Source: Flavimarina sp. Hel_I_48
GTDB taxonomy: Bacteria > Bacteroidota > Bacteroidia > Flavobacteriales > Flavobacteriaceae
DNA: 64,000 bases
Reading direction: 5' to 3'
Assembly: GCF_000733945.1 (NCBI RefSeq)
Contig: NZ_JPOL01000002.1
Span: 1,489,001 to 1,553,000, forward strand
Position numbers and translations under genes: made by a program. Positions 956-34,198 of the stretch are shown here, piece after piece; the stretch's first letter is position 1, and each line of letters opens with the position of its first letter. The notes beneath the pieces were generated by a model that saw nothing but the letters and a program-made list of their open reading frames with translations, did no database searches and was not told where the DNA came from.

Positions 956-1972
956 ATGCCTTTACTAGAATTCAATACAAAAGGGATTTATTGTCCGCCC
1001 GCAAAAGTATATCTGGACCCCTGGAAACCTGTTGACAAAGCCATTATTTCACACGGTCACGCAGACCACAGCCGCTGGGGTCATAAACAATATATTACGC
1101 ACCATACAAACGTTCCCATCATTAAACACCGCTTGGGCGACATAGAAGTAACCGGAAAAGCCTACAACGAGACATTTGTGATCAACAACGTGAAGTTTAG
1201 TTTTCACCCTGCCGGGCACATCATTGGGAGTTCTCAGATTCGTGTGGAGCACAAAGGCGAAGTCTGGGTATTTACCGGGGATTACAAGACCGAAAACGAC
1301 GGTGTGGCAGTTCCCTATGAACCTATAAAATGCGATACGTTTATTACGGAATGCACCTTTGGCCTACCAGCTTTTAAGTGGGTTCCTCAGGAAGAAGTTT
1401 TTGAAGATATCAACAACTGGTGGGCAACCAATAAAGCGGAGGGAAAAACCTCGATCCTTTTTGGCTATTCCCTGGGGAAAGCCCAGCGTTTGCTAAAATA
1501 TTTAAATCCAGAAATAGGAAAGATTTACACCCATGGCGCCATCGAAAACATGACCGAGGTCGTGCGCCCTTTTATAGACATGCCACCCACAGAACGCATC
1601 ACACGGGAAACCGACAAAAAAGCGATCGCCGGGAATATGGTTTTGGCACCGCCCAGTGCACACGGCAGCACCTGGATCAGGAAAATGGTACCTTATGTAA
1701 CGGGCTCTGCCAGTGGCTGGATGACTTTCCGCGGAGCGCGAAGAAGACGTGCCATTGATAAAGGTTTTGTACTATCTGACCATTGTGACTGGCCCGGACT
1801 GTTAGAAAGTATCAAAGAAACCGGCGCCGAAAAAATAATAAGTACCCATGGCTATAGCGATATTTTCTCTCGCTATCTGCGCGAGCAGGGCTACGATGCC
1901 CGTACCGAAGCCACACAGTATGAAGGCGAACTCGCAGAACTGGACAGTAAAAAAGAGGCTGAGGAGGCGTAA
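956..1972 (+). CDS. ligase-associated DNA exonuclease, metallo-beta-lactamase fold
   Basis: This 338-residue cytosolic protein has the metallo-beta-lactamase metal motif HGHADH at 33-38, a second-shell HPAGH at 84-88, TGDYK at 107-111 and a late STHGYSD motif near residue 297. This is the layout of the SNM1/CPSF-like exonuclease found beside ATP-dependent ligases and Lhr-core helicases in many bacteria. The family resects DNA using divalent metal. It is the first gene of the repair cluster (exonuclease, ligase, helicase, PdeM). The 131-base gap to the ligase is almost filled by a C-rich palindromic repeat, so co-transcription would run through a strong hairpin. The start is the ATG at 956, because the frame is not open upstream. 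Confidence 0.9.
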   Translation: MPLLEFNTKGIYCPPAKVYLDPWKPVDKAIISHGHADHSRWGHKQYITHHTNVPIIKHRLGDIEVTGKAYNETFVINNVKFSFHPAGHIIGSSQIRVEHKGEVWVFTGDYKTENDGVAVPYEPIKCDTFITECTFGLPAFKWVPQEEVFEDINNWWATNKAEGKTSILFGYSLGKAQRLLKYLNPEIGKIYTHGAIENMTEVVRPFIDMPPTERITRETDKKAIAGNMVLAPPSAHGSTWIRKMVPYVTGSASGWMTFRGARRRRAIDKGFVLSDHCDWPGLLESIKETGAEKIISTHGYSDIFSRYLREQGYDARTEATQYEGELAELDSKKEAEEA

Positions 1973-2079
1973 ATCCCCCTAACCCTCAAAGGGGGGACTT
2001 TAATTCTTTGAATTTTAAAAGGCTCCCCTCTTTTTCAAGGAGGGAAAATTTTCCGCTTGCGGAAAGAGGGGTGGTTGCA
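1973..2079. repeat. C-rich palindromic doublet, copy R1
   Basis: The element starts directly after the exonuclease stop with a short C-rich arm (CCCCCTAACCCTCAAAGGGG). An AT-rich spacer follows, then a longer unit from GGCTCCCCTC to GAGGGGTGGTT that contains an internal stem TTCCGC/GCGGAA. It has the same architecture as the copies at 3763-3906 and 4289-4446: an inverted unit, a spacer and a direct unit. It could fold in RNA and attenuate or stabilise the exonuclease-ligase transcript (inference). Confidence 0.8.
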
Positions 2080-2103: not shown

Positions 2104-3735
2104 ATGAAGAAATTTGCCCAATTAATAAAAACACTTGATAGTACCAATAAAACCAATCTTAAGGTTGAGGCGCTGGCCCAGTATTTTCGGGAGGCTGACG
2201 ATGATGATAAAATCTGGACGATCGCCATTCTCTCGCACCGCCGCCCACCGCGACCTGTAAACACCACGTTGTTGCGTATGTGGGCTACAGAACTTGCCGG
2301 GATCCCATTGTGGTTGTTTGAAGAAAGCTACCATATTGTAGGTGATCTTGCAGAGACCATTGCGCTGATTATTCCCGCTTCAAGCGAAAGTTCTGAAAAA
2401 AGTCTTACTCAGTTTCTGGAAGAAATCCTGGCCTTAAAAAAGAAACCGGAAGACGATAAACGCGAATACCTTTTTGAAAACTGGACAAACCTCAACTATT
2501 ATGAGCGTTTTGTCTTTTCAAAACTGATCACCGGCAGCTTCCGTATTGGGGTAAGTCAGAAATTGATGACGCGGGCGCTTTCAAAAGCAACCGAAATTGA
2601 TGAAGATATCCTGGCCTATAAACTCATGGGAAGTTGGACACCACAGAACACGACCTATCAGAAGTTGATTCTGGAAACGAACGAAGAGGATTATCTTTCA
2701 AAACCCTACCCTTTTTACCTTGCCTACGCCATTGAAGGCGAACCTGAAGATCTGGGTTCTGTTTCAGACTGGTTTTTAGAACATAAATGGGATGGTATAC
2801 GCGCACAGGTTATCCTGCGCAATGAAGAGGTTTTTGTCTGGTCGCGTGGGGAAGAACTGGTGACCGACAAGTATCCCGAGTTTCAGGATTTTGTGGGCGT
2901 GATTCCTGATGGAACGGTAATGGACGGAGAACTGCTGCCATTCCCCAAAGGGAAAATAGGCAGTTTTAACGATCTGCAAAAGCGCATAGGCCGCAAAACC
3001 ATTTCTAAAAATTTACTGGCCAAAGTCCCCGTTCGTCTAAAAGCATATGATCTTTTAGAATGGAAGGGCGAGGATATTCGTGATCAGCCTTTCGCCGAAC
3101 GCCGGAAACTTTTAGAACAACTTATTAAAAAAATCAACACTCCTGAATTGCCTCTGGAACTTTCCGAAACCATGCATTTTGACTCCTGGGAAGAAGCCGC
3201 TGAAGAACGCGAACGTTCCCGGGAAGTCCTTTCGGAAGGATTGATGCTAAAGCGGAAAGACTCTCCTTACCTTGTGGGCCGCAAAAAAGGCGACTGGTGG
3301 AAATGGAAGGTTGATCCCCTTACCATAGACGCCGTTCTCACCTATGCGATGCGCGGCCATGGCCGGCGTACCAATCTATTTACAGATTATACTTTCGGGC
3401 TTTGGGATGAAAAAAAAGAGGAACTGGTCACTTTTGCAAAAGCCTACTCGGGACTTACAGATAAAGAATTCCGAAGTCTTGATGCGTGGATCAAAAAAAA
3501 TATACTTGAACGGTTTGGCCCCGTTCGCAGCGTAACACCGTATCATGTTTTTGAGATCGGTTTTGAGGGTATCGCGCCTTCCGGCAGGCATAAAAGTGGG
3601 GTTGCCACACGTTTCCCACGTATGCTGCGCTGGCGAAAGGACAAGAAGATCGAAGAAGCTAACTCACTGGAGGATTTAAAAGCACTCATTCCCACCGCAG
3701 CAAAAGAGTCTGCAAAAAGGACAAAAGAATCCTGA
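2104..3735 (+). CDS. ATP-dependent DNA ligase
   Basis: This 543-residue protein has an N-terminal helical DNA-binding domain (about 1-195), then the nucleotidyltransferase domain. The active-site lysine is K228 in the motif EHKWDGIRAQ, and MDGELL further on corresponds to motif III. An OB-fold domain follows (WWKWKVDPLTIDAVL and downstream). It carries none of the primase-polymerase or phosphoesterase domains of LigD. The family seals 5'-phosphate/3'-OH nicks with ATP, alongside the essential NAD-dependent LigA. Its place between the MBL exonuclease and the Lhr helicase/PdeM pair is the standard ligase-associated repair cluster, most likely for break or gap repair. Confidence 0.95.
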   Translation: MKKFAQLIKTLDSTNKTNLKVEALAQYFREADDDDKIWTIAILSHRRPPRPVNTTLLRMWATELAGIPLWLFEESYHIVGDLAETIALIIPASSESSEKSLTQFLEEILALKKKPEDDKREYLFENWTNLNYYERFVFSKLITGSFRIGVSQKLMTRALSKATEIDEDILAYKLMGSWTPQNTTYQKLILETNEEDYLSKPYPFYLAYAIEGEPEDLGSVSDWFLEHKWDGIRAQVILRNEEVFVWSRGEELVTDKYPEFQDFVGVIPDGTVMDGELLPFPKGKIGSFNDLQKRIGRKTISKNLLAKVPVRLKAYDLLEWKGEDIRDQPFAERRKLLEQLIKKINTPELPLELSETMHFDSWEEAAEERERSREVLSEGLMLKRKDSPYLVGRKKGDWWKWKVDPLTIDAVLTYAMRGHGRRTNLFTDYTFGLWDEKKEELVTFAKAYSGLTDKEFRSLDAWIKKNILERFGPVRSVTPYHVFEIGFEGIAPSGRHKSGVATRFPRMLRWRKDKKIEEANSLEDLKALIPTAAKESAKRTKES

Positions 3736-3762: not shown

Positions 3763-3906
3763 AACCCTTCCGTCAGCGCGAGCGCTGCCACCTTCCCTTC
3801 AAAAGGGAAGGAGCTTTTAAAAATCTCAGATTTTCACTTTTTTTGGGCTCTCCTCCTTTTTAAGGAGGAGAAAATTTCAGCTTTGCTGAAAGAGAGGTGG
3901 TTTTTT
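3763..3906. repeat. C-rich palindromic doublet, copy R2 (left flank of DUF559 gene)
   Basis: The left unit (CCTTCCGTCAG to GGGAAGGAGC) is inverted relative to the right unit (GGCTCTCCTCC to GAGAGGTGGTT), with about 30 AT-rich bases between them. Each unit has its own stem. The right unit pairs CTCCTCC with GGAGGAG and TTCAGC with GCTGAA. The left unit is close to the reverse complement of the unit at about 34091-34144, some 30 kb away, with differences mainly in the loop. The element ends about 15 bases before the DUF559 start codon. Confidence 0.85.
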
Positions 3907-3922
3907 CTTAAGTTTATTGCTC

Positions 3923-4288
3923 ATGAAACGTAAAATACATAACCTCAAACATCTAAAATCTTTTAGAAAAGACCTTAGGAACAAAGGAACTTCCGCAGAA
4001 GCCTATCTTTGGAAACACCTAAAAAATTCTCGTCTCAGGGACAGAAAATTTAGACGACAGCACAGTATAGAAAATTATATTGTAGACTTTTACTGTCCAA
4101 AAGAGCAACTGATTATTGAACTTGATGGAGCGGTTCATTTCAATGCAACTGCAGAAGAAAAAGATAACCTTAGAACAGAAAAATTAGAACAGTTAGGATT
4201 TACGGTAATTCGGTTTGAGAATAGGATGGTTTTTGATTTTTTGCCTTCTGTTTTAAAAGAAATTGAGGATTGTTTTAAACAGCATTGA
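3923..4288 (+). CDS. DUF559 domain endonuclease-like protein (Vsr/PD-(D/E)XK superfamily)
   Basis: This is a 121-residue protein from the ATG at 3923 (an in-frame TTG lies 6 bases upstream). The fold signature is RRQHSIENYIVDFYCPKEQL followed by IIELDGAVHF. D55, E66 and D68 are the likely metal-binding acidic residues, as in Vsr-like very short patch repair endonucleases. The N-terminus is very basic (RKIHNLKHLKSFRKDLRNK), which suits DNA binding. DUF559 proteins have no firmly established substrate. This gene breaks the otherwise standard order ligase-helicase and is flanked on both sides by large palindromic doublets. That suggests it arrived together with the repeats. It has no other domain and no signal peptide. 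Confidence 0.85.
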   Translation: MKRKIHNLKHLKSFRKDLRNKGTSAEAYLWKHLKNSRLRDRKFRRQHSIENYIVDFYCPKEQLIIELDGAVHFNATAEEKDNLRTEKLEQLGFTVIRFENRMVFDFLPSVLKEIEDCFKQH

Positions 4289-4446
4289 TGACCCCTCCGG
4301 CTTCCGCTGAAAAAGCGGAAGCCACCTCCCCTTGAAAAAAGGGGAGAAGCCAAAAAAGTGAAAATCTAAGATTTTCATTCATTTTAAAAGGCTCCCCTCC
4401 TTTTCAAGGAGGGGAAAATTTCAGCTTTGCTGAAAGAGGGGTGGTT
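4289..4446. repeat. C-rich palindromic doublet, copy R3 (right flank of DUF559 gene)
   Basis: The left unit begins directly after the DUF559 stop (ACCCCTCCGGCTTCCGCTG and onward, stem CGGCTTCCGC/GCGGAAGCC) and is followed by CCACCTCCCC/GGGGAGAAGCC. An AT-rich spacer of about 37 bases contains its own small palindrome AAAATCTAAGATTTT. The right unit runs from GGCTCCCCTCC to GAGGGGTGGTT. Compared with R2, the right-unit stem changes from CTCCTCC/GGAGGAG to CCCCTCC/GGAGGGG, a compensatory change that keeps the pairing. The helicase start codon lies about 50 bases downstream. Confidence 0.85.
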
Positions 4447-7030: not shown

Positions 7031-7164
7031 ACGGTTATGGGAAAAATAAAATGCTGAAAATAGAGTGTGATCTTTCGTCACTGCTGAAAATAACGGTTCT
7101 GGCGAGATGACTATCGGAAATTATTATGGGCTTTTGGGTAAAAAACCCCAACTTTGCAGTTGCT

Positions 7165-7800
7165 ATGTATCAAGAGATTTCAATTCATAACCATTCCTTT
7201 TTGCTTCATCCCTGTGGCGTTATTTTCTGGAAGGAAAAAAGAATGTTGCTCATCGCGGATGTGCATCTGGGCAAGGTTTCCCATTTCAGAAAATTTGGAA
7301 GTGCCGTGCCACAGCAGGCCGTTGATTCCAATTTTAATGCACTCACGCGTGTGGTAGAGGATTTTGAACCAGAAATTGTCTGTTTTCTGGGTGATCTTTT
7401 CCACAGTTCGTTTAATAAAGAATGGCTGCTTTTTGAAAAATGGATTCATACCCGCAATGAGAAATTCATTCTGGTAGCGGGCAACCACGATATCATTTCG
7501 CCTTTTCATTATGAAGCTGTAGGCATGGAAATCGCTTCAGAACTTGTGATAGGTGATTTTTTACTTACTCACCACCCTACCGAGCGTGACGGCTTCTTTA
7601 ATTTTTCGGGACATATTCATCCCGGTATTCGATTGAGCGGTCTGGGCAGGCAAACGCTAAAACTTTCCTGCTTTTTTAAGTCGGAAAATCAGCTGATTTT
7701 GCCTGCTTTTGGCACTTTTACAGGTAATTATTACCTCAAACCCGAACCGGGAGATGCCGTTTTTGCAATCACAAAAAATGAAGTGATACAGGTGTATTAA
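7165..7800 (+). CDS. pdeM: ligase-associated DNA damage response endonuclease PdeM (metallophosphoesterase)
   Basis: This is a 211-residue protein from the ATG at 7165. An in-frame ATG 13 codons upstream (7126) gives an atypical N-terminus. Calcineurin-like metallophosphoesterase motifs are in order: ADVHLGK (31-37, D32/H34), FLGDLFHS (about 76-83), GNHD (about 107-110), LTHHP and GHIHPG. The family (MPE/PdeM) is a manganese-dependent nuclease or phosphoesterase that co-occurs with the Lhr-core helicase, MBL exonuclease and ATP-dependent ligase. It completes the four-gene repair set here. No gene follows until the DUF1080 gene, which has its own candidate promoter. Confidence 0.92.
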   Translation: MYQEISIHNHSFLLHPCGVIFWKEKRMLLIADVHLGKVSHFRKFGSAVPQQAVDSNFNALTRVVEDFEPEIVCFLGDLFHSSFNKEWLLFEKWIHTRNEKFILVAGNHDIISPFHYEAVGMEIASELVIGDFLLTHHPTERDGFFNFSGHIHPGIRLSGLGRQTLKLSCFFKSENQLILPAFGTFTGNYYLKPEPGDAVFAITKNEVIQVY

Positions 7801-28050: not shown

Positions 28051-28079
28051 GATTCTGAATTTATTCTTTTGTGACATGA

Positions 28080-28182
28080 CCTGCAAGGTATGAGCGAGGA
28101 ACGAGTGATCCTTGTAGGTCTTACACAGAACAGCGATTAGACCTACAAGGAGGCCTTCGTTCCTCAGGCAACACCTTGCAGG
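28080..28182. repeat. nested palindromic element P1 (CCTGCAAGG family)
   Basis: A 103-base element bounded by CCTGCAAGG and CCTTGCAGG. Inside it are GAGGAACGA paired with TCGTTCCTC, and CCTTGTAGGTCT paired with AGACCTACAAGG around a loop of about 17 bases. The whole element would fold into one long hairpin. It has no ORF of its own. A relative, P2, lies at 33909-34035. Confidence 0.8.
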
Positions 28183-28226
28183 GCTGAAATTCTAAGTTGA
28201 TATTAACGTGAAGGTCTATAAATCAG

Positions 28227-31734: not shown

Positions 31735-33900
31735 ATGCCCAGCATTCAAGATTTCATAATCCAACAAACCTCAATCTCACATGCTGGAGTAAAAAACACC
31801 CTCCAGCTTCTGGCAGAAGACTGTACCATTCCCTTTATTTCCCGCTATCGGAAAGAGCGTACCGGGAATCTGGACGAAGTGCAGATTGGTGAAATTGTAA
31901 AGCTCAAAGAGCAGTTTGAAACGCTGGAAAAGAGGAAAGGCACTATTCTAAAAGCGCTGGAAGATCAGAACGCGCTCACTCCAGATTTACAAAAGCAGAT
32001 TGAAAATACGCAGGACGCAACCACCCTTGAAGATCTTTACCTGCCTTTCAAAAAGAAGCGGAAAACCAAAGCTGATACTGCCCGAAATAACGGACTCGAA
32101 CCACTCGCTAAAATCATCATGTCGCAACCCAGCGGCATGAACGCACAAAAATTGACCGAAACCGCTTCAAAATATGCCAAAAAAGAGGTGAAATCCAGCG
32201 AGGAGGCACTGGAAGGTGCGCGCTATATTATTGCAGAATGGGTAAATGAACGCACTGATGTTCGCAATGCACTGCGCCGGGAACTGGAGCGTAATGCCGT
32301 GCTCACGACCAAGGTTATAAAAGCCCAGAAAGAAGAGGAAAAAGCGCAAAAATACCGCGATTATTTCAAGTGGGAAGAGGCCTTAAGAAATTGTCCATCG
32401 CACCGGTTTTTAGCTATTTTGAGGGCAGAAAAAGAAGGTTTTATACGGGTAAAAATAACTATTGATGAGGAACGCGCATTAGAACACATCAACAGAAAAG
32501 TAATAAAATCCCCTTCCGCGTGCGCGGAACAGATCAGCATGGCGGTTGAGGATGGTTACAAACGTTTGCTTTTCCCCGCACTTTCCAATGAGGTTTTAAA
32601 TTCGGCAAAGGAAAAAGCGGATAACGAAGCGATTTTGGTGTTTGCCAAAAATCTAAAACAGCTGCTACTGGGTGCTCCACTGGGTCAAAAGCGCATTCTT
32701 GCCATTGATCCCGGGTTTAGGACGGGCTGCAAAGTGGTTTGCCTGGATGCGCAGGGCGGCCTGCAGCATAACGAAACCATTTATCCCCACCCGCCTAAAA
32801 AAGACATCAAAGGCGCCAGCAAAAAAATCAGTTTTCTGGTTGAGGCGTATAAGATTGACGCGATTGCCATAGGCAACGGTACCGCCTCGCGCGAGACCGA
32901 ACATTTTATACGTAAAATCCCTTTCAAGACCGATCTGCAAGTGTTTGTGGTAAGCGAGGCCGGGGCAAGTATTTATTCGGCATCGCCCATTGCGCGGGCA
33001 GAATTTCCCAATTATGATGTAACCGTGCGCGGCGCGGTTTCCATAGGTCGCAGACTTGCAGATCCACTGGCTGAACTGGTGAAAATTGATGCAAAATCAA
33101 TTGGTGTGGGGCAATATCAGCATGATGTAGATCAGGTCAAATTGCAAAGCGAACTGGACCGCGTGGTTGAAACCTGCGTGAACGCGGTGGGCGTAAATAT
33201 CAATACCGCCAGTGCCCCGCTGCTGAGCTACGTTTCGGGAATAGGTGATAAACTGGCCGAAAATATTGTTGCCCACCGGGAGGAAAACGGTGCGTTTGCT
33301 TCGCGAAAAGAGATACTAAACGTCGCCCGACTTGGTGCTAAAGCCTTTGAACAATCGGCTGGATTTCTTCGTATACGCGATGGTAAAAATCCACTGGATA
33401 ATTCTGCCGTGCATCCGGAAAGTTACCCAATTGTTGAAAAAATGGCTAAAAATGCCCATAAATCGGTTGCCGAATTGATTGGAAACACGTCTGAACTTAG
33501 CGATATAAATCTTGAAAAATACGAGACCGAAAGTGTGGGATTGCTTACACTAAAGGATATTATTAACGAACTTGAAAAACCCGGACTGGATATTCGCGCG
33601 GAAGCAAAAGTGTTTACTTTCAATCAAAACATCAAGACTATCGAAGATCTGGAAAAGGGCCAATTATTGCCCGGAATTGTCAATAATGTGACCAATTTTG
33701 GTGCTTTTGTGGATATTGGGATCAAAGAAAGTGGTCTTATCCATATCTCCAATCTCGCCGAAGGTTTTGTGAGCGATGTAAGTGCGCATGTCGCTCTTCA
33801 TGAACAAGTAGTGGTTGAAGTGCTTGATGTTGATATTCCGCGGAAGCGCATTCAGTTGAAGAAAAGTAAAATCCCCCTAACCCCCAAAGGGGGGAAGTGA
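31735..33900 (+). CDS. tex: Tex-like S1 RNA-binding transcription accessory protein
   Basis: This 721-residue protein has the full family layout. The N-terminal Tex domain contains FISRYRKERTGNLDEVQIGE. A YqgF-like RNase H fold (RILAIDPGFRTGCKVVCLDA) is followed by helix-hairpin-helix motifs (LLSYVSGIGDKLAENIVAHR) and a C-terminal S1 domain (GIVNNVTNFGAFVDIGIKES, about 642-715). Tex proteins bind nucleic acid and affect transcription and stress tolerance. The native protein seems to end near QLKKSK. The final IPLTPKGGK is encoded by a C-rich repeat arm whose next bases supply the TGA stop. Confidence 0.95.
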   Translation: MPSIQDFIIQQTSISHAGVKNTLQLLAEDCTIPFISRYRKERTGNLDEVQIGEIVKLKEQFETLEKRKGTILKALEDQNALTPDLQKQIENTQDATTLEDLYLPFKKKRKTKADTARNNGLEPLAKIIMSQPSGMNAQKLTETASKYAKKEVKSSEEALEGARYIIAEWVNERTDVRNALRRELERNAVLTTKVIKAQKEEEKAQKYRDYFKWEEALRNCPSHRFLAILRAEKEGFIRVKITIDEERALEHINRKVIKSPSACAEQISMAVEDGYKRLLFPALSNEVLNSAKEKADNEAILVFAKNLKQLLLGAPLGQKRILAIDPGFRTGCKVVCLDAQGGLQHNETIYPHPPKKDIKGASKKISFLVEAYKIDAIAIGNGTASRETEHFIRKIPFKTDLQVFVVSEAGASIYSASPIARAEFPNYDVTVRGAVSIGRRLADPLAELVKIDAKSIGVGQYQHDVDQVKLQSELDRVVETCVNAVGVNINTASAPLLSYVSGIGDKLAENIVAHREENGAFASRKEILNVARLGAKAFEQSAGFLRIRDGKNPLDNSAVHPESYPIVEKMAKNAHKSVAELIGNTSELSDINLEKYETESVGLLTLKDIINELEKPGLDIRAEAKVFTFNQNIKTIEDLEKGQLLPGIVNNVTNFGAFVDIGIKESGLIHISNLAEGFVSDVSAHVALHEQVVVEVLDVDIPRKRIQLKKSKIPLTPKGGK
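33871..33897. repeat. C-rich repeat arm forming the tex C-terminal tail (R6)
   Basis: ATCCCCCTAACCCCCAAAGG plus GGGGAAG is close to the left arm of R1 (1975 onward). It lies inside the tex reading frame immediately before the stop codon. Confidence 0.7.
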
Positions 33901-33908
33901 CGCGCTGA

Positions 33909-34035
33909 CCTGCAAGGCGATGTGCTGAGTTTATCGAAGTATATGAGAGAGGCACGAGCGGTTCCTTGTAGGTCTAATTGGATTCCACGTTAGACCTACA
34001 AGGAGGTCTTCGTTCCTCAGACAACACCTTGCAGG
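33909..34035. repeat. nested palindromic element P2 (CCTGCAAGG family)
   Basis: A 127-base relative of P1 (28080-28182) bounded by CCTGCAAGG and CCTTGCAGG. It carries the internal pair CCTTGTAGGTCTAA/TTAGACCTACAAGG and the arm TTCGTTCCTCAGACAACACC, nearly identical to P1. The left arm has extra sequence compared with P1. It sits between two C-rich repeat fragments, which suggests insertion into a repeat cluster. Confidence 0.8.
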
Positions 34036-34037
34036 TT

Positions 34038-34144
34038 AAAAAAAGGAGGGGAGCTTTAACCTTAGTTTCAATTTTAAAATCGCAATTTAAGGCTCCTTCC
34101 CTTTCCAAGGGAAGGTGGCAGTGCGCAGCACTGACGGAAGGGTT
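34038..34144. repeat. C-rich palindromic doublet upstream of the deacetylase gene (R7)
   Basis: A short left arm (AAGGAGGGGAGC) is followed by an AT-rich spacer and a full right unit from GGCTCCTTCCC to CTGACGGAAGGG. The right unit is nearly the reverse complement of the left unit of R2 at 3763-3815. The 298-base gap between tex and the deacetylase gene is made almost wholly of repeats. Confidence 0.8.
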
Positions 34145-34198
34145 TGCGCCCTAAACTTAAATAACCCGTTAGCGTGTAAACATCCTATTAATAAATCA

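What the first reader, a model, noticed from the sequence alone, without database searches (positions are those of the whole stretch)
3763..4446. DUF559 nuclease gene between two REPIN-like palindromic doublets, inserted into a conserved DNA-repair cluster
Seen directly: the ligase-associated cluster has the order exonuclease, ligase, DUF559, helicase, PdeM. The DUF559 gene is bracketed by elements R2 and R3, each built as inverted unit, AT-rich spacer and direct unit. Between R2 and R3 the right-unit stem changes CTCCTCC/GGAGGAG to CCCCTCC/GGAGGGG, a compensatory change that keeps pairing. A unit almost identical to the R2 left unit recurs 30 kb away. Known: REPIN doublets in pseudomonads are spread by the RAYT transposase, and DUF559 belongs to the Vsr/PD-(D/E)XK superfamily without a set function. 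Inference: the DUF559 protein may process or mobilise these hairpins, a nuclease-repeat system parallel to RAYT/REPIN.
Basis: partly seen in the sequence, partly recalled or inferred. Interest (0 to 1): 0.8.

Follow-up and report, generated by a model that had tools for sequence, protein, structure and literature searches.

The report
DUF559 nuclease gene with triplex-forming repeats
A small nuclease gene of unknown role sits, in most bacteria looked at here, beside copies of a DNA repeat that can fold into a three-stranded hairpin, which suggests that the nuclease is the missing partner enzyme of a repeat known since the 1990s.

Summary
The palindromes are not ordinary REPs: each unit is a polypyrimidine/polypurine hairpin plus a tag mirroring the purine arm (G->G, A->A or T), the code of an intrastrand purine triplex (140 of 205 hairpins match 9/9; arm shuffles mean 20, maximum 31). 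They are thus boxC/PIT/TM-like, repeats for which Holder et al. 2015 found no mobility gene nearby. DUF559 genes carry them: hairpins beside 75 of the 80 best-matching loci, about 63 times background density, 18 of 20 loci of a family survey, and, by a looser rule, 16 of 19 loci in three other phyla. Repeat load tracks DUF559 (>=5 matches: OR 26.5 in 199 genomes, 16.8 in 296) more than Y1 transposases (OR 2.5). DUF559 also sits in frame inside LeuS, MetH and RecG, with hairpins at 18 of 20. The ligase-helicase junction is polymorphic within the genus. The fold is nearest to a solved DUF559 protein and homing endonuclease I-Bth0305I. Best reading: DUF559 recognises and probably mobilises these repeats; biochemistry untested.

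The parts
956..1972 (+). ligase-associated exonuclease (TIGR04122); host cluster
1973..2076 (+). R1: triplex-repeat doublet without gene (left unit of CCCCCTAACCC type, right unit with tag GGGGTGGTT)
2104..3735 (+). ATP-dependent DNA ligase (TIGR04120); host cluster
3763..3811 (-). R2 left unit, inverted: tag 3763-3771, hairpin 2 about 3774-3787, triplex hairpin 3791-3811 (CCTTCCC type)
   Evidence: tag match (L180; L214)
3849..3902 (+). R2 right unit: triplex hairpin 3849-3871 (CTCCTCC type), hairpin 2 3875-3891, tag GAGGTGGTT 3894-3902
   Evidence: L229
3923..4288 (+). DUF559 (PF04480, YcjD-like) nuclease ORF, 121 aa from ATG 3923 (TTG 3917 possible); D55, E66, D68, H72 invariant in 26 relatives
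4291..4346 (-). R3 left unit, inverted: tag 4291-4298, hairpin 2 4299-4323, triplex hairpin 4326-4346
4393..4446 (+). R3 right unit: triplex hairpin 4393-4415 (CCCCTCC type), hairpin 2 4419-4435, tag GGGGTGGTT 4438-4446
   Evidence: L227
4495..6963 (+). ligase-associated DEXH helicase (TIGR04121); host cluster
7126..7800 (+). PdeM phosphoesterase (TIGR04123); host cluster
33869..34145 (.). R4: dispersed doublet, one unit interrupted by a second repeat family (about 33900-34036)

Best explanation
DUF559/YcjD is the cognate nuclease of the boxC/PIT/TM kind of triplex-forming repeats, and gene plus repeats form a mobile family laid out like RAYT/REPIN. Shown by sequence: DUF559 genes are flanked by the repeats, often on both sides, in several phyla; the repeats carry a 3' tag that fits the hairpin's purine arm as an antiparallel purine third strand; the window's genome holds one full-length gene and some twenty dispersed repeat sites; repeat load follows gene presence; the gene, usually with hairpins at its ends, is found in frame inside LeuS, MetH and RecG, and is absent at the same places in relatives. 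Inferred: the enzyme recognises the folded (single-stranded or extruded) hairpin with its tag, cuts near the tag or at a target, and host replication or repair then copies the unit, the inverted doublet, or the doublet with the gene as its spacer into a new site.
For: Flanks: hairpin near 75 of 80 loci (the best 80 of 571 relatives found), tagged in 72, tagged on both sides in 40; 205 hairpins in at most 72 kb near versus 32 in 709 kb far (profile). Other phyla: 16 of 19 by a 6-bp-arm rule, tagged 14. Mirror code 140 of 205 at 9/9 versus direct 12, reverse complement 8, 200 shuffles mean 20.2 maximum 31. In-frame inserts: hairpin upstream 14, downstream 17, both 13, either 18 of 20; 22 of 29 LeuS genes of relatives have a 20-26 residue loop there instead. 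Co-occurrence: >=5 model matches in 28 of 57 genomes with a stand-alone gene versus 5 of 142 without (p 1.4e-13); phylum sample 48 of 126 versus 6 of 170. Y1 transposase association weaker (OR 1.5, 2.5, 2.3 at >=1, >=5, >=10; p 0.2, 0.02, 0.09), and no match in the own genome at E<=1e-4. dN/dS 0.035 to 0.11 in the 4 of 21 congener pairs that could be computed, none with the window's own gene. Fold and profile: I-Bth0305I next after the solved DUF559 protein 3hrl. E. coli TM no. 9 lies about 170 nt from ycjD.
Against: No biochemistry, and no observed transposition. Repeats without any DUF559 hit exist (G165 with 14 matches, G187 with 7; G254, G233, G345 with >=10 in the phylum sample, where weaker gene hits than E 1e-15 were not looked at). 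18 of 57 genomes with a stand-alone gene have no model match at all, so the model misses types or the link is loose. Two of 20 survey loci lack a strict hairpin; L110, L203 and L212 fail in other phyla. In E. coli the two TM units lie on one side of ycjD, not around it. The repeat model was trained on tagged hairpins from around DUF559 genes, the gene's own flanks add matches, and palindromes are counted on both strands, so low thresholds are inflated; >=10 matches still gives OR 18 to 19. Relatedness was not corrected for. No target-site duplication was defined. Holder et al. saw no stable triplex in vivo.
Confidence: 0.6

Rival explanations
1. DUF559 is a selfish homing-type nuclease that uses the triplex repeats as landing sites: the repeats spread by another agent, and the gene inserts into or between them.
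For: The nearest solved relative with a known role is homing endonuclease I-Bth0305I; in the window a complete doublet lies on each side of the gene; some genomes carry repeats without the gene.
Against: Repeat load depends strongly on gene presence; the one other candidate looked at, a Y1 transposase, is not found in the own genome; in LeuS and MetH inverted units sit at the insert ends, so repeats and gene appear to have arrived together.
Confidence: 0.19
2. DUF559 is a housekeeping structure-specific nuclease that removes or repairs triplex hairpins that stall replication; repeats persist only where it is present.
For: Vsr-type repair nickase among the fold matches, at rank 13; location in a DNA-repair cluster here; PIT elements block DNA polymerase in vitro (told in PMC4666352).
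Against: Does not explain why the gene itself is flanked by repeats, nor in-frame insertion into LeuS, MetH and RecG; the gene is absent at the junction in five of 12 congeners and ycjD is strain-variable in E. coli.
Confidence: 0.1
3. The hairpins are terminators or regulators of the DUF559 gene, copied elsewhere by chance.
For: GC-rich hairpins near a gene are often terminators (general knowledge).
Against: The tag follows the stem by a mirror rule; hairpins lie on both sides and in coding sequence; dispersed copies lie far from the gene; PIT elements showed no promoter or terminator activity (told in PMC4666352).
Confidence: 0.04
4. Repeats are moved by a RAYT/IS200-type Y1 transposase and DUF559 is a passenger.
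For: REPIN-like doublets; Y1 matches are common in the family (78 of 199 genomes), with a weak association at >=5 matches (OR 2.5, p 0.02).
Against: Own genome has no Y1 match but about 23 distinct repeat sites; among genomes without a stand-alone DUF559, >=5 matches occur in 2 of 44 with Y1 and 3 of 98 without.
Confidence: 0.03

Closest known systems
boxC / PIT / TM (TMECO) intrastrand triplex repeats (Holder et al. 2015, PMC4666352)
   Same: Polypyrimidine hairpin plus mirror third strand; dispersed; inverted doublets of two different unit types; TM no. 9 lies beside ycjD.
REPIN/RAYT (Y1 HUH transposase and GTAG-tagged REPs)
   Same: Nuclease gene bracketed by palindromes; dispersed gene-less doublets.
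   Different: Unrelated enzyme fold; tag is a mirror third strand, not a GTAG tetranucleotide; no Y1 match in the own genome.
I-Bth0305I and related Vsr-like homing endonucleases
   Same: Nearest solved fold apart from 3hrl; a mobile-DNA nuclease.
   Different: The LeuS, MetH and RecG inserts are continuous with the host reading frame; stand-alone genes carry flanking repeats.
Rickettsia palindromic elements (recalled, not tested)
   Same: Palindromic repeats in frame inside protein genes (recalled).
   Different: No DUF559 link known to me; not compared here.

Membership tests
DUF559 (PF04480) / YcjD | Profile match above the curated cut-off | tested here: met
   115 bits, cut-off 20.6; the NCBIfam YcjD equivalog model matched below its cut-off, 73 of 218 bits, so it is a relative, not an ortholog call
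Vsr / I-Bth0305I nuclease fold | Structural match with conserved acidic and His residues | tested here: met
   Foldseek 3r3p E 2.6e-4; 1vsr only at rank 13, E 0.079; D55, E66, D68, H72 invariant in 26 sequences
boxC/PIT/TM intrastrand triplex motif | Y/R hairpin followed by a mirror third strand (G on GC, A or T on AT) | tested here: met
   140 of 205 at 9/9, shuffles max 31; in the own genome 15 of 20 distinct sites among L213-L242 tagged, my count
boxC/PIT/TM intrastrand triplex motif | Short loop between purine arm and third strand | tested here: not met
   In the four flanking units of the window 19-28 nt, including hairpin 2, separate them (L180); short-loop forms of about 3 nt occur elsewhere, e.g. 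L057, L058, L080
boxC/PIT/TM intrastrand triplex motif | Folds as a triplex | not testable with these tools
   Shown by others for TMECO oligonucleotides in vitro, not in vivo (PMC4666352, sections read)
REPIN/RAYT | Cognate Y1 HUH transposase (PF01797) | tested here: not met
   No PF01797 match in own genome at E<=1e-4
REPIN/RAYT | Gene bracketed by repeats plus dispersed gene-less doublets | tested here: met
Homing endonuclease in intron or intein | Resides in a self-splicing intron or intein | tested here: inconclusive
   Stand-alone ORF here; LeuS, MetH and RecG inserts are continuous in frame; no Rfam match in the window; no intein profile search was made
Homing endonuclease | Cuts a specific target and is copied there | not testable with these tools
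   -

The most novel reading that the evidence does not exclude
DUF559/YcjD nucleases and boxC/PIT/TM repeats together form an unrecognised class of bacterial mobile element, spread over several phyla, in which a homing-endonuclease-like enzyme recognises its DNA through an intrastrand triple helix and spreads minimal gene-less copies (and at times itself, in frame, into essential genes).
Probability: 0.5. Interest if true: 0.95.

Novelty: new variant of a known kind. Interest (0 to 1): 0.85.

Why it matters
boxC/PIT/TM repeats have been known since the 1990s (as told in PMC4666352) and no partner enzyme is named in the papers seen here; DUF559 is a large family without a set function. Linking them gives both a hypothesis that can be tested at once in E. 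coli K-12, where ycjD sits beside one of the 23 TM copies. A triple helix used as a recognition code for a nuclease would be a new principle of DNA recognition, and the in-frame insertions into LeuS, MetH and RecG show that such elements enter the coding sequence of conserved proteins.

Tried and rejected
Large-frame DUF559 hits were first taken as a negative control; they turned out to be in-frame inserts with hairpins of their own, so no domain-level negative control remains. Y1 transposase as mobiliser: disfavoured. Rfam: no family in the window at gathering threshold. PADLOC gave only weak partial matches (mREase_II 6e-6, DpdF 2e-4). L184 versus L185 did not give a clean target-site duplication. 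Papers: ten searches listed none whose listing links DUF559 or YcjD to these repeats; the 14 papers that hold 'DUF559' were seen as a listing only, and no preprints or subscription journals are held, so this is weak proof of absence. A Gammaproteobacteria-wide count with the published TM consensus could not be run; the Bacteroidota phylum sample was run instead. A tree of DUF559 against repeat type was not made. dN/dS failed in 17 of 21 pairs. Covariation of stem pairs is not independent evidence, because the hairpins were picked for pairing.

Full report
1. What is in the window. The cluster is exonuclease, ligase, DUF559, helicase, PdeM. The window lies in a 4.14 Mb genome that has one full-length PF04480 gene (7.6e-33) and one weak partial match. 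R2 and R3 flank the gene, R1 lies between exonuclease and ligase, and an interrupted copy lies at 33869-34145.

2. The repeats are triplex-type. A table of 205 hairpins beside 80 related genes showed that the stretch after the hairpin (directly, or after a variable second hairpin) tends to be the mirror image of the purine arm, with A kept or changed to T: AAGGAGGGG goes with GGGGTGGTT, AAGGGAAGG with GGAAGGGTT, AAGGAGGAG with GAGGTGGTT, AAAGAGGGG with GGGGAGATT. This is the code of an antiparallel purine triplex (G on GC, A or T on AT). Of 205 hairpins 140 match 9 of 9; the same test with the direct arm gives 12, the reverse complement 8, and 200 shuffles of arms among hairpins mean 20.2, maximum 31 (an earlier count on 185 grouped hairpins gave 129 against 20.5). 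Mirror symmetry does not arise by copying and is not what a protein dimer reads, so a fold-back third strand is the natural reading (inference). In the window the step from R2 to R3 changes both stem strands and the tag together. Stem pairs vary on both sides in 7 of 9 pairs of 62 aligned hairpins, but these hairpins were picked for pairing.

3. The repeats are known; the link was not found in print. Holder et al. 2015 (PMC4666352; abstract, sections 12, 15 and 18, part 1 of section 20, and passages read) describe boxC/PIT/TM motifs: 23 copies in E. coli K-12, inverted doublets always of two types, and no mobility genes near them. Their copy no. 9 (1,351,204-1,351,239) lies about 170 nt from the 3' end of ycjD, the E. 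coli DUF559 gene; with 18 TM regions in 4.64 Mb the chance that one lies within 200 bp of a given gene of this size is about 0.003 (my arithmetic). 'DUF', 'endonuclease' and 'vsr' and 'ycjD' do not occur in that paper. In another strain (L245) two complete TM units stand in inverted order on the 3' side of ycjD, the second overlapping its 3' end; K-12 has the first and a piece of the second without its tag. So in E. coli the gene is beside a doublet, not bracketed. PMC12817139 (passages read) reports ycjD in place of the eef operon in phylogroups A, B1 and C and a 12-nt longer ORF in ST69 and ST182; I read those 12 nt as the TM tag (inference). Of 5426 E. coli genomes 3333 hold at least 80% of the 811-bp ycjD stretch; two without it (L243, L244) have a TetR gene and an efflux gene there.

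4. The association is general. In the best 80 of 571 relatives a hairpin lies within 400 bp up or 500 bp down in 75, tagged in 72, tagged on both sides in 40; 205 hairpins in at most 72 kb near against 32 (27 tagged) in 709 kb more than 1 kb away, about 63-fold. The five loci without a strict hairpin show imperfect ones by eye. Nineteen loci from Pseudomonadota, Cyanobacteriota and Deinococcota: 16 with hairpin, 14 tagged, by a looser 6-nt rule and without a shuffle control. One of the 80 loci is titled Candidatus Magasanikbacteria (L079).

5. DUF559 inside genes. One search lists 31 matches in frames over 800 aa; 20 were fetched and are DUF559 in frame inside LeuS (15), MetH (3) and RecG (2) (host names are my reading of the sequences). 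By a 5-bp-arm rule 14 have a hairpin upstream, 17 downstream, 13 on both sides, 18 on at least one, against one per about 8 kb elsewhere in the same stretches. In 29 LeuS genes found in 31 genomes around G109, 22 have a 20-26 residue loop at the place, two are slightly longer (L156, L165), one has DUF559 (the query genome itself), one (L169) a repeat-only insert, one (L162) a decayed insert, one (L160) another repeat, and in L175 the place was not found.

6. Repeat load follows the gene. Model R1, built from tagged hairpins of the loci above, was searched in 199 genomes of the family: 56 have a match. Stand-alone class: 57 genomes, hand-sorted (frame of at most 211 aa, E<=1e-20; frames of 243-800 aa and partial hits left out). 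>=1 match 39 of 57 against 17 of 142; >=5: 28 against 5 (OR 26.5, p 1.4e-13); >=10: 16 against 3. Phylum sample of 296 genomes in 140 genera, any DUF559 at E<=1e-15: >=5: 48 of 126 against 6 of 170 (OR 16.8, p 9e-15); >=10: 32 against 3; it shares some genomes with the first. Y1 transposases: OR 1.5, 2.5 and 2.3 at >=1, >=5 and >=10 (p 0.2, 0.02, 0.09). Exceptions: G165 and G187 (repeats, no gene hit), G090 (only a weak hit), G012 (gene in broken pieces), G149 (only in-frame DUF559), and 18 of 57 gene-bearing genomes without a model match. The own genome gives 36 matches at E<=0.1, about 23 distinct sites (my count); of 20 distinct sites among L213-L242, 15 carry a tag.

7. The junction. Of 40 genomes searched 23 have the helicase. 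In 12 genomes of the genus the ligase-helicase junction holds DUF559 in seven (own included), repeats only in one (L181), neither in four (L182, L183, L185, L188). Of 11 loci outside it one (L191) has the gene, six have ligase and helicase ORFs that overlap, and four (L195, L196, L199, L200) have other layouts without DUF559. So the gene is an insertion, not a fixed cluster member. The genus is probably Leeuwenhoekiella (L184 and L187 read the same as L005 and L006 at the junction; inference). dN/dS is 0.035 to 0.11 in the 4 of 21 pairs computable, none with the window's own gene.

8. The protein. AlphaFold2 model, mean pLDDT 89.7. Foldseek: 3hrl (a DUF559 protein, E 5e-8), then homing endonuclease I-Bth0305I (2.6e-4), PvuRts1I-type enzymes, and Vsr at rank 13 (0.079); the profile search finds 3hrl (7e-26) and I-Bth0305I (0.011).

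9. Conclusion. Association, mirror code and in-frame insertion are shown by sequence; recognition, cutting and mobilisation are inferred. In layout it works like RAYT/REPIN, but it is not a member. After checking, confidence was lowered slightly (0.62 to 0.60) because E. coli ycjD is flanked on one side only and because three of the 20 survey loci are not independent.

Noticed in passing
window 28078-28183 and about 33900-34036: A second palindromic repeat family (GACCTGCAAGG ... CCTTGTAGGTCTAA / TTAGACCTACAAGGAGG ... ACCTTGCAGG); one copy has split R4. It resembles repeats I recall near Bacteroidota RAYT genes, yet the genome has no Y1_Tnp match.
   Followed up: partly
L131-L150: LeuS, MetH and RecG carry in-frame DUF559 domains; whether each protein is made as one chain is unknown.
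   Followed up: partly
L108 1894-3333: Photobacterium plasmid: a long array of triplex units follows the DUF559 match.
   Followed up: no
L209: Pseudanabaena plasmid: the DUF559 match lies inside a very large annotated protein, with tagged hairpins near.
   Followed up: no
L160 (LeuS loop): The same LeuS loop holds an in-frame insert that looks like a different palindromic repeat, so the loop may tolerate several element families.
   Followed up: no
L245 and L101, ycjD 3' end: The 12-nt length difference of ycjD between E. coli lineages looks like gain or loss of a TM third-strand tag.
   Followed up: partly
G000:C2:2033875-2034000: Weak partial PF04480 match (profile 66-107) in a 209-aa frame; similar weak hits occur in many family genomes and may be another nuclease family.
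   Followed up: no
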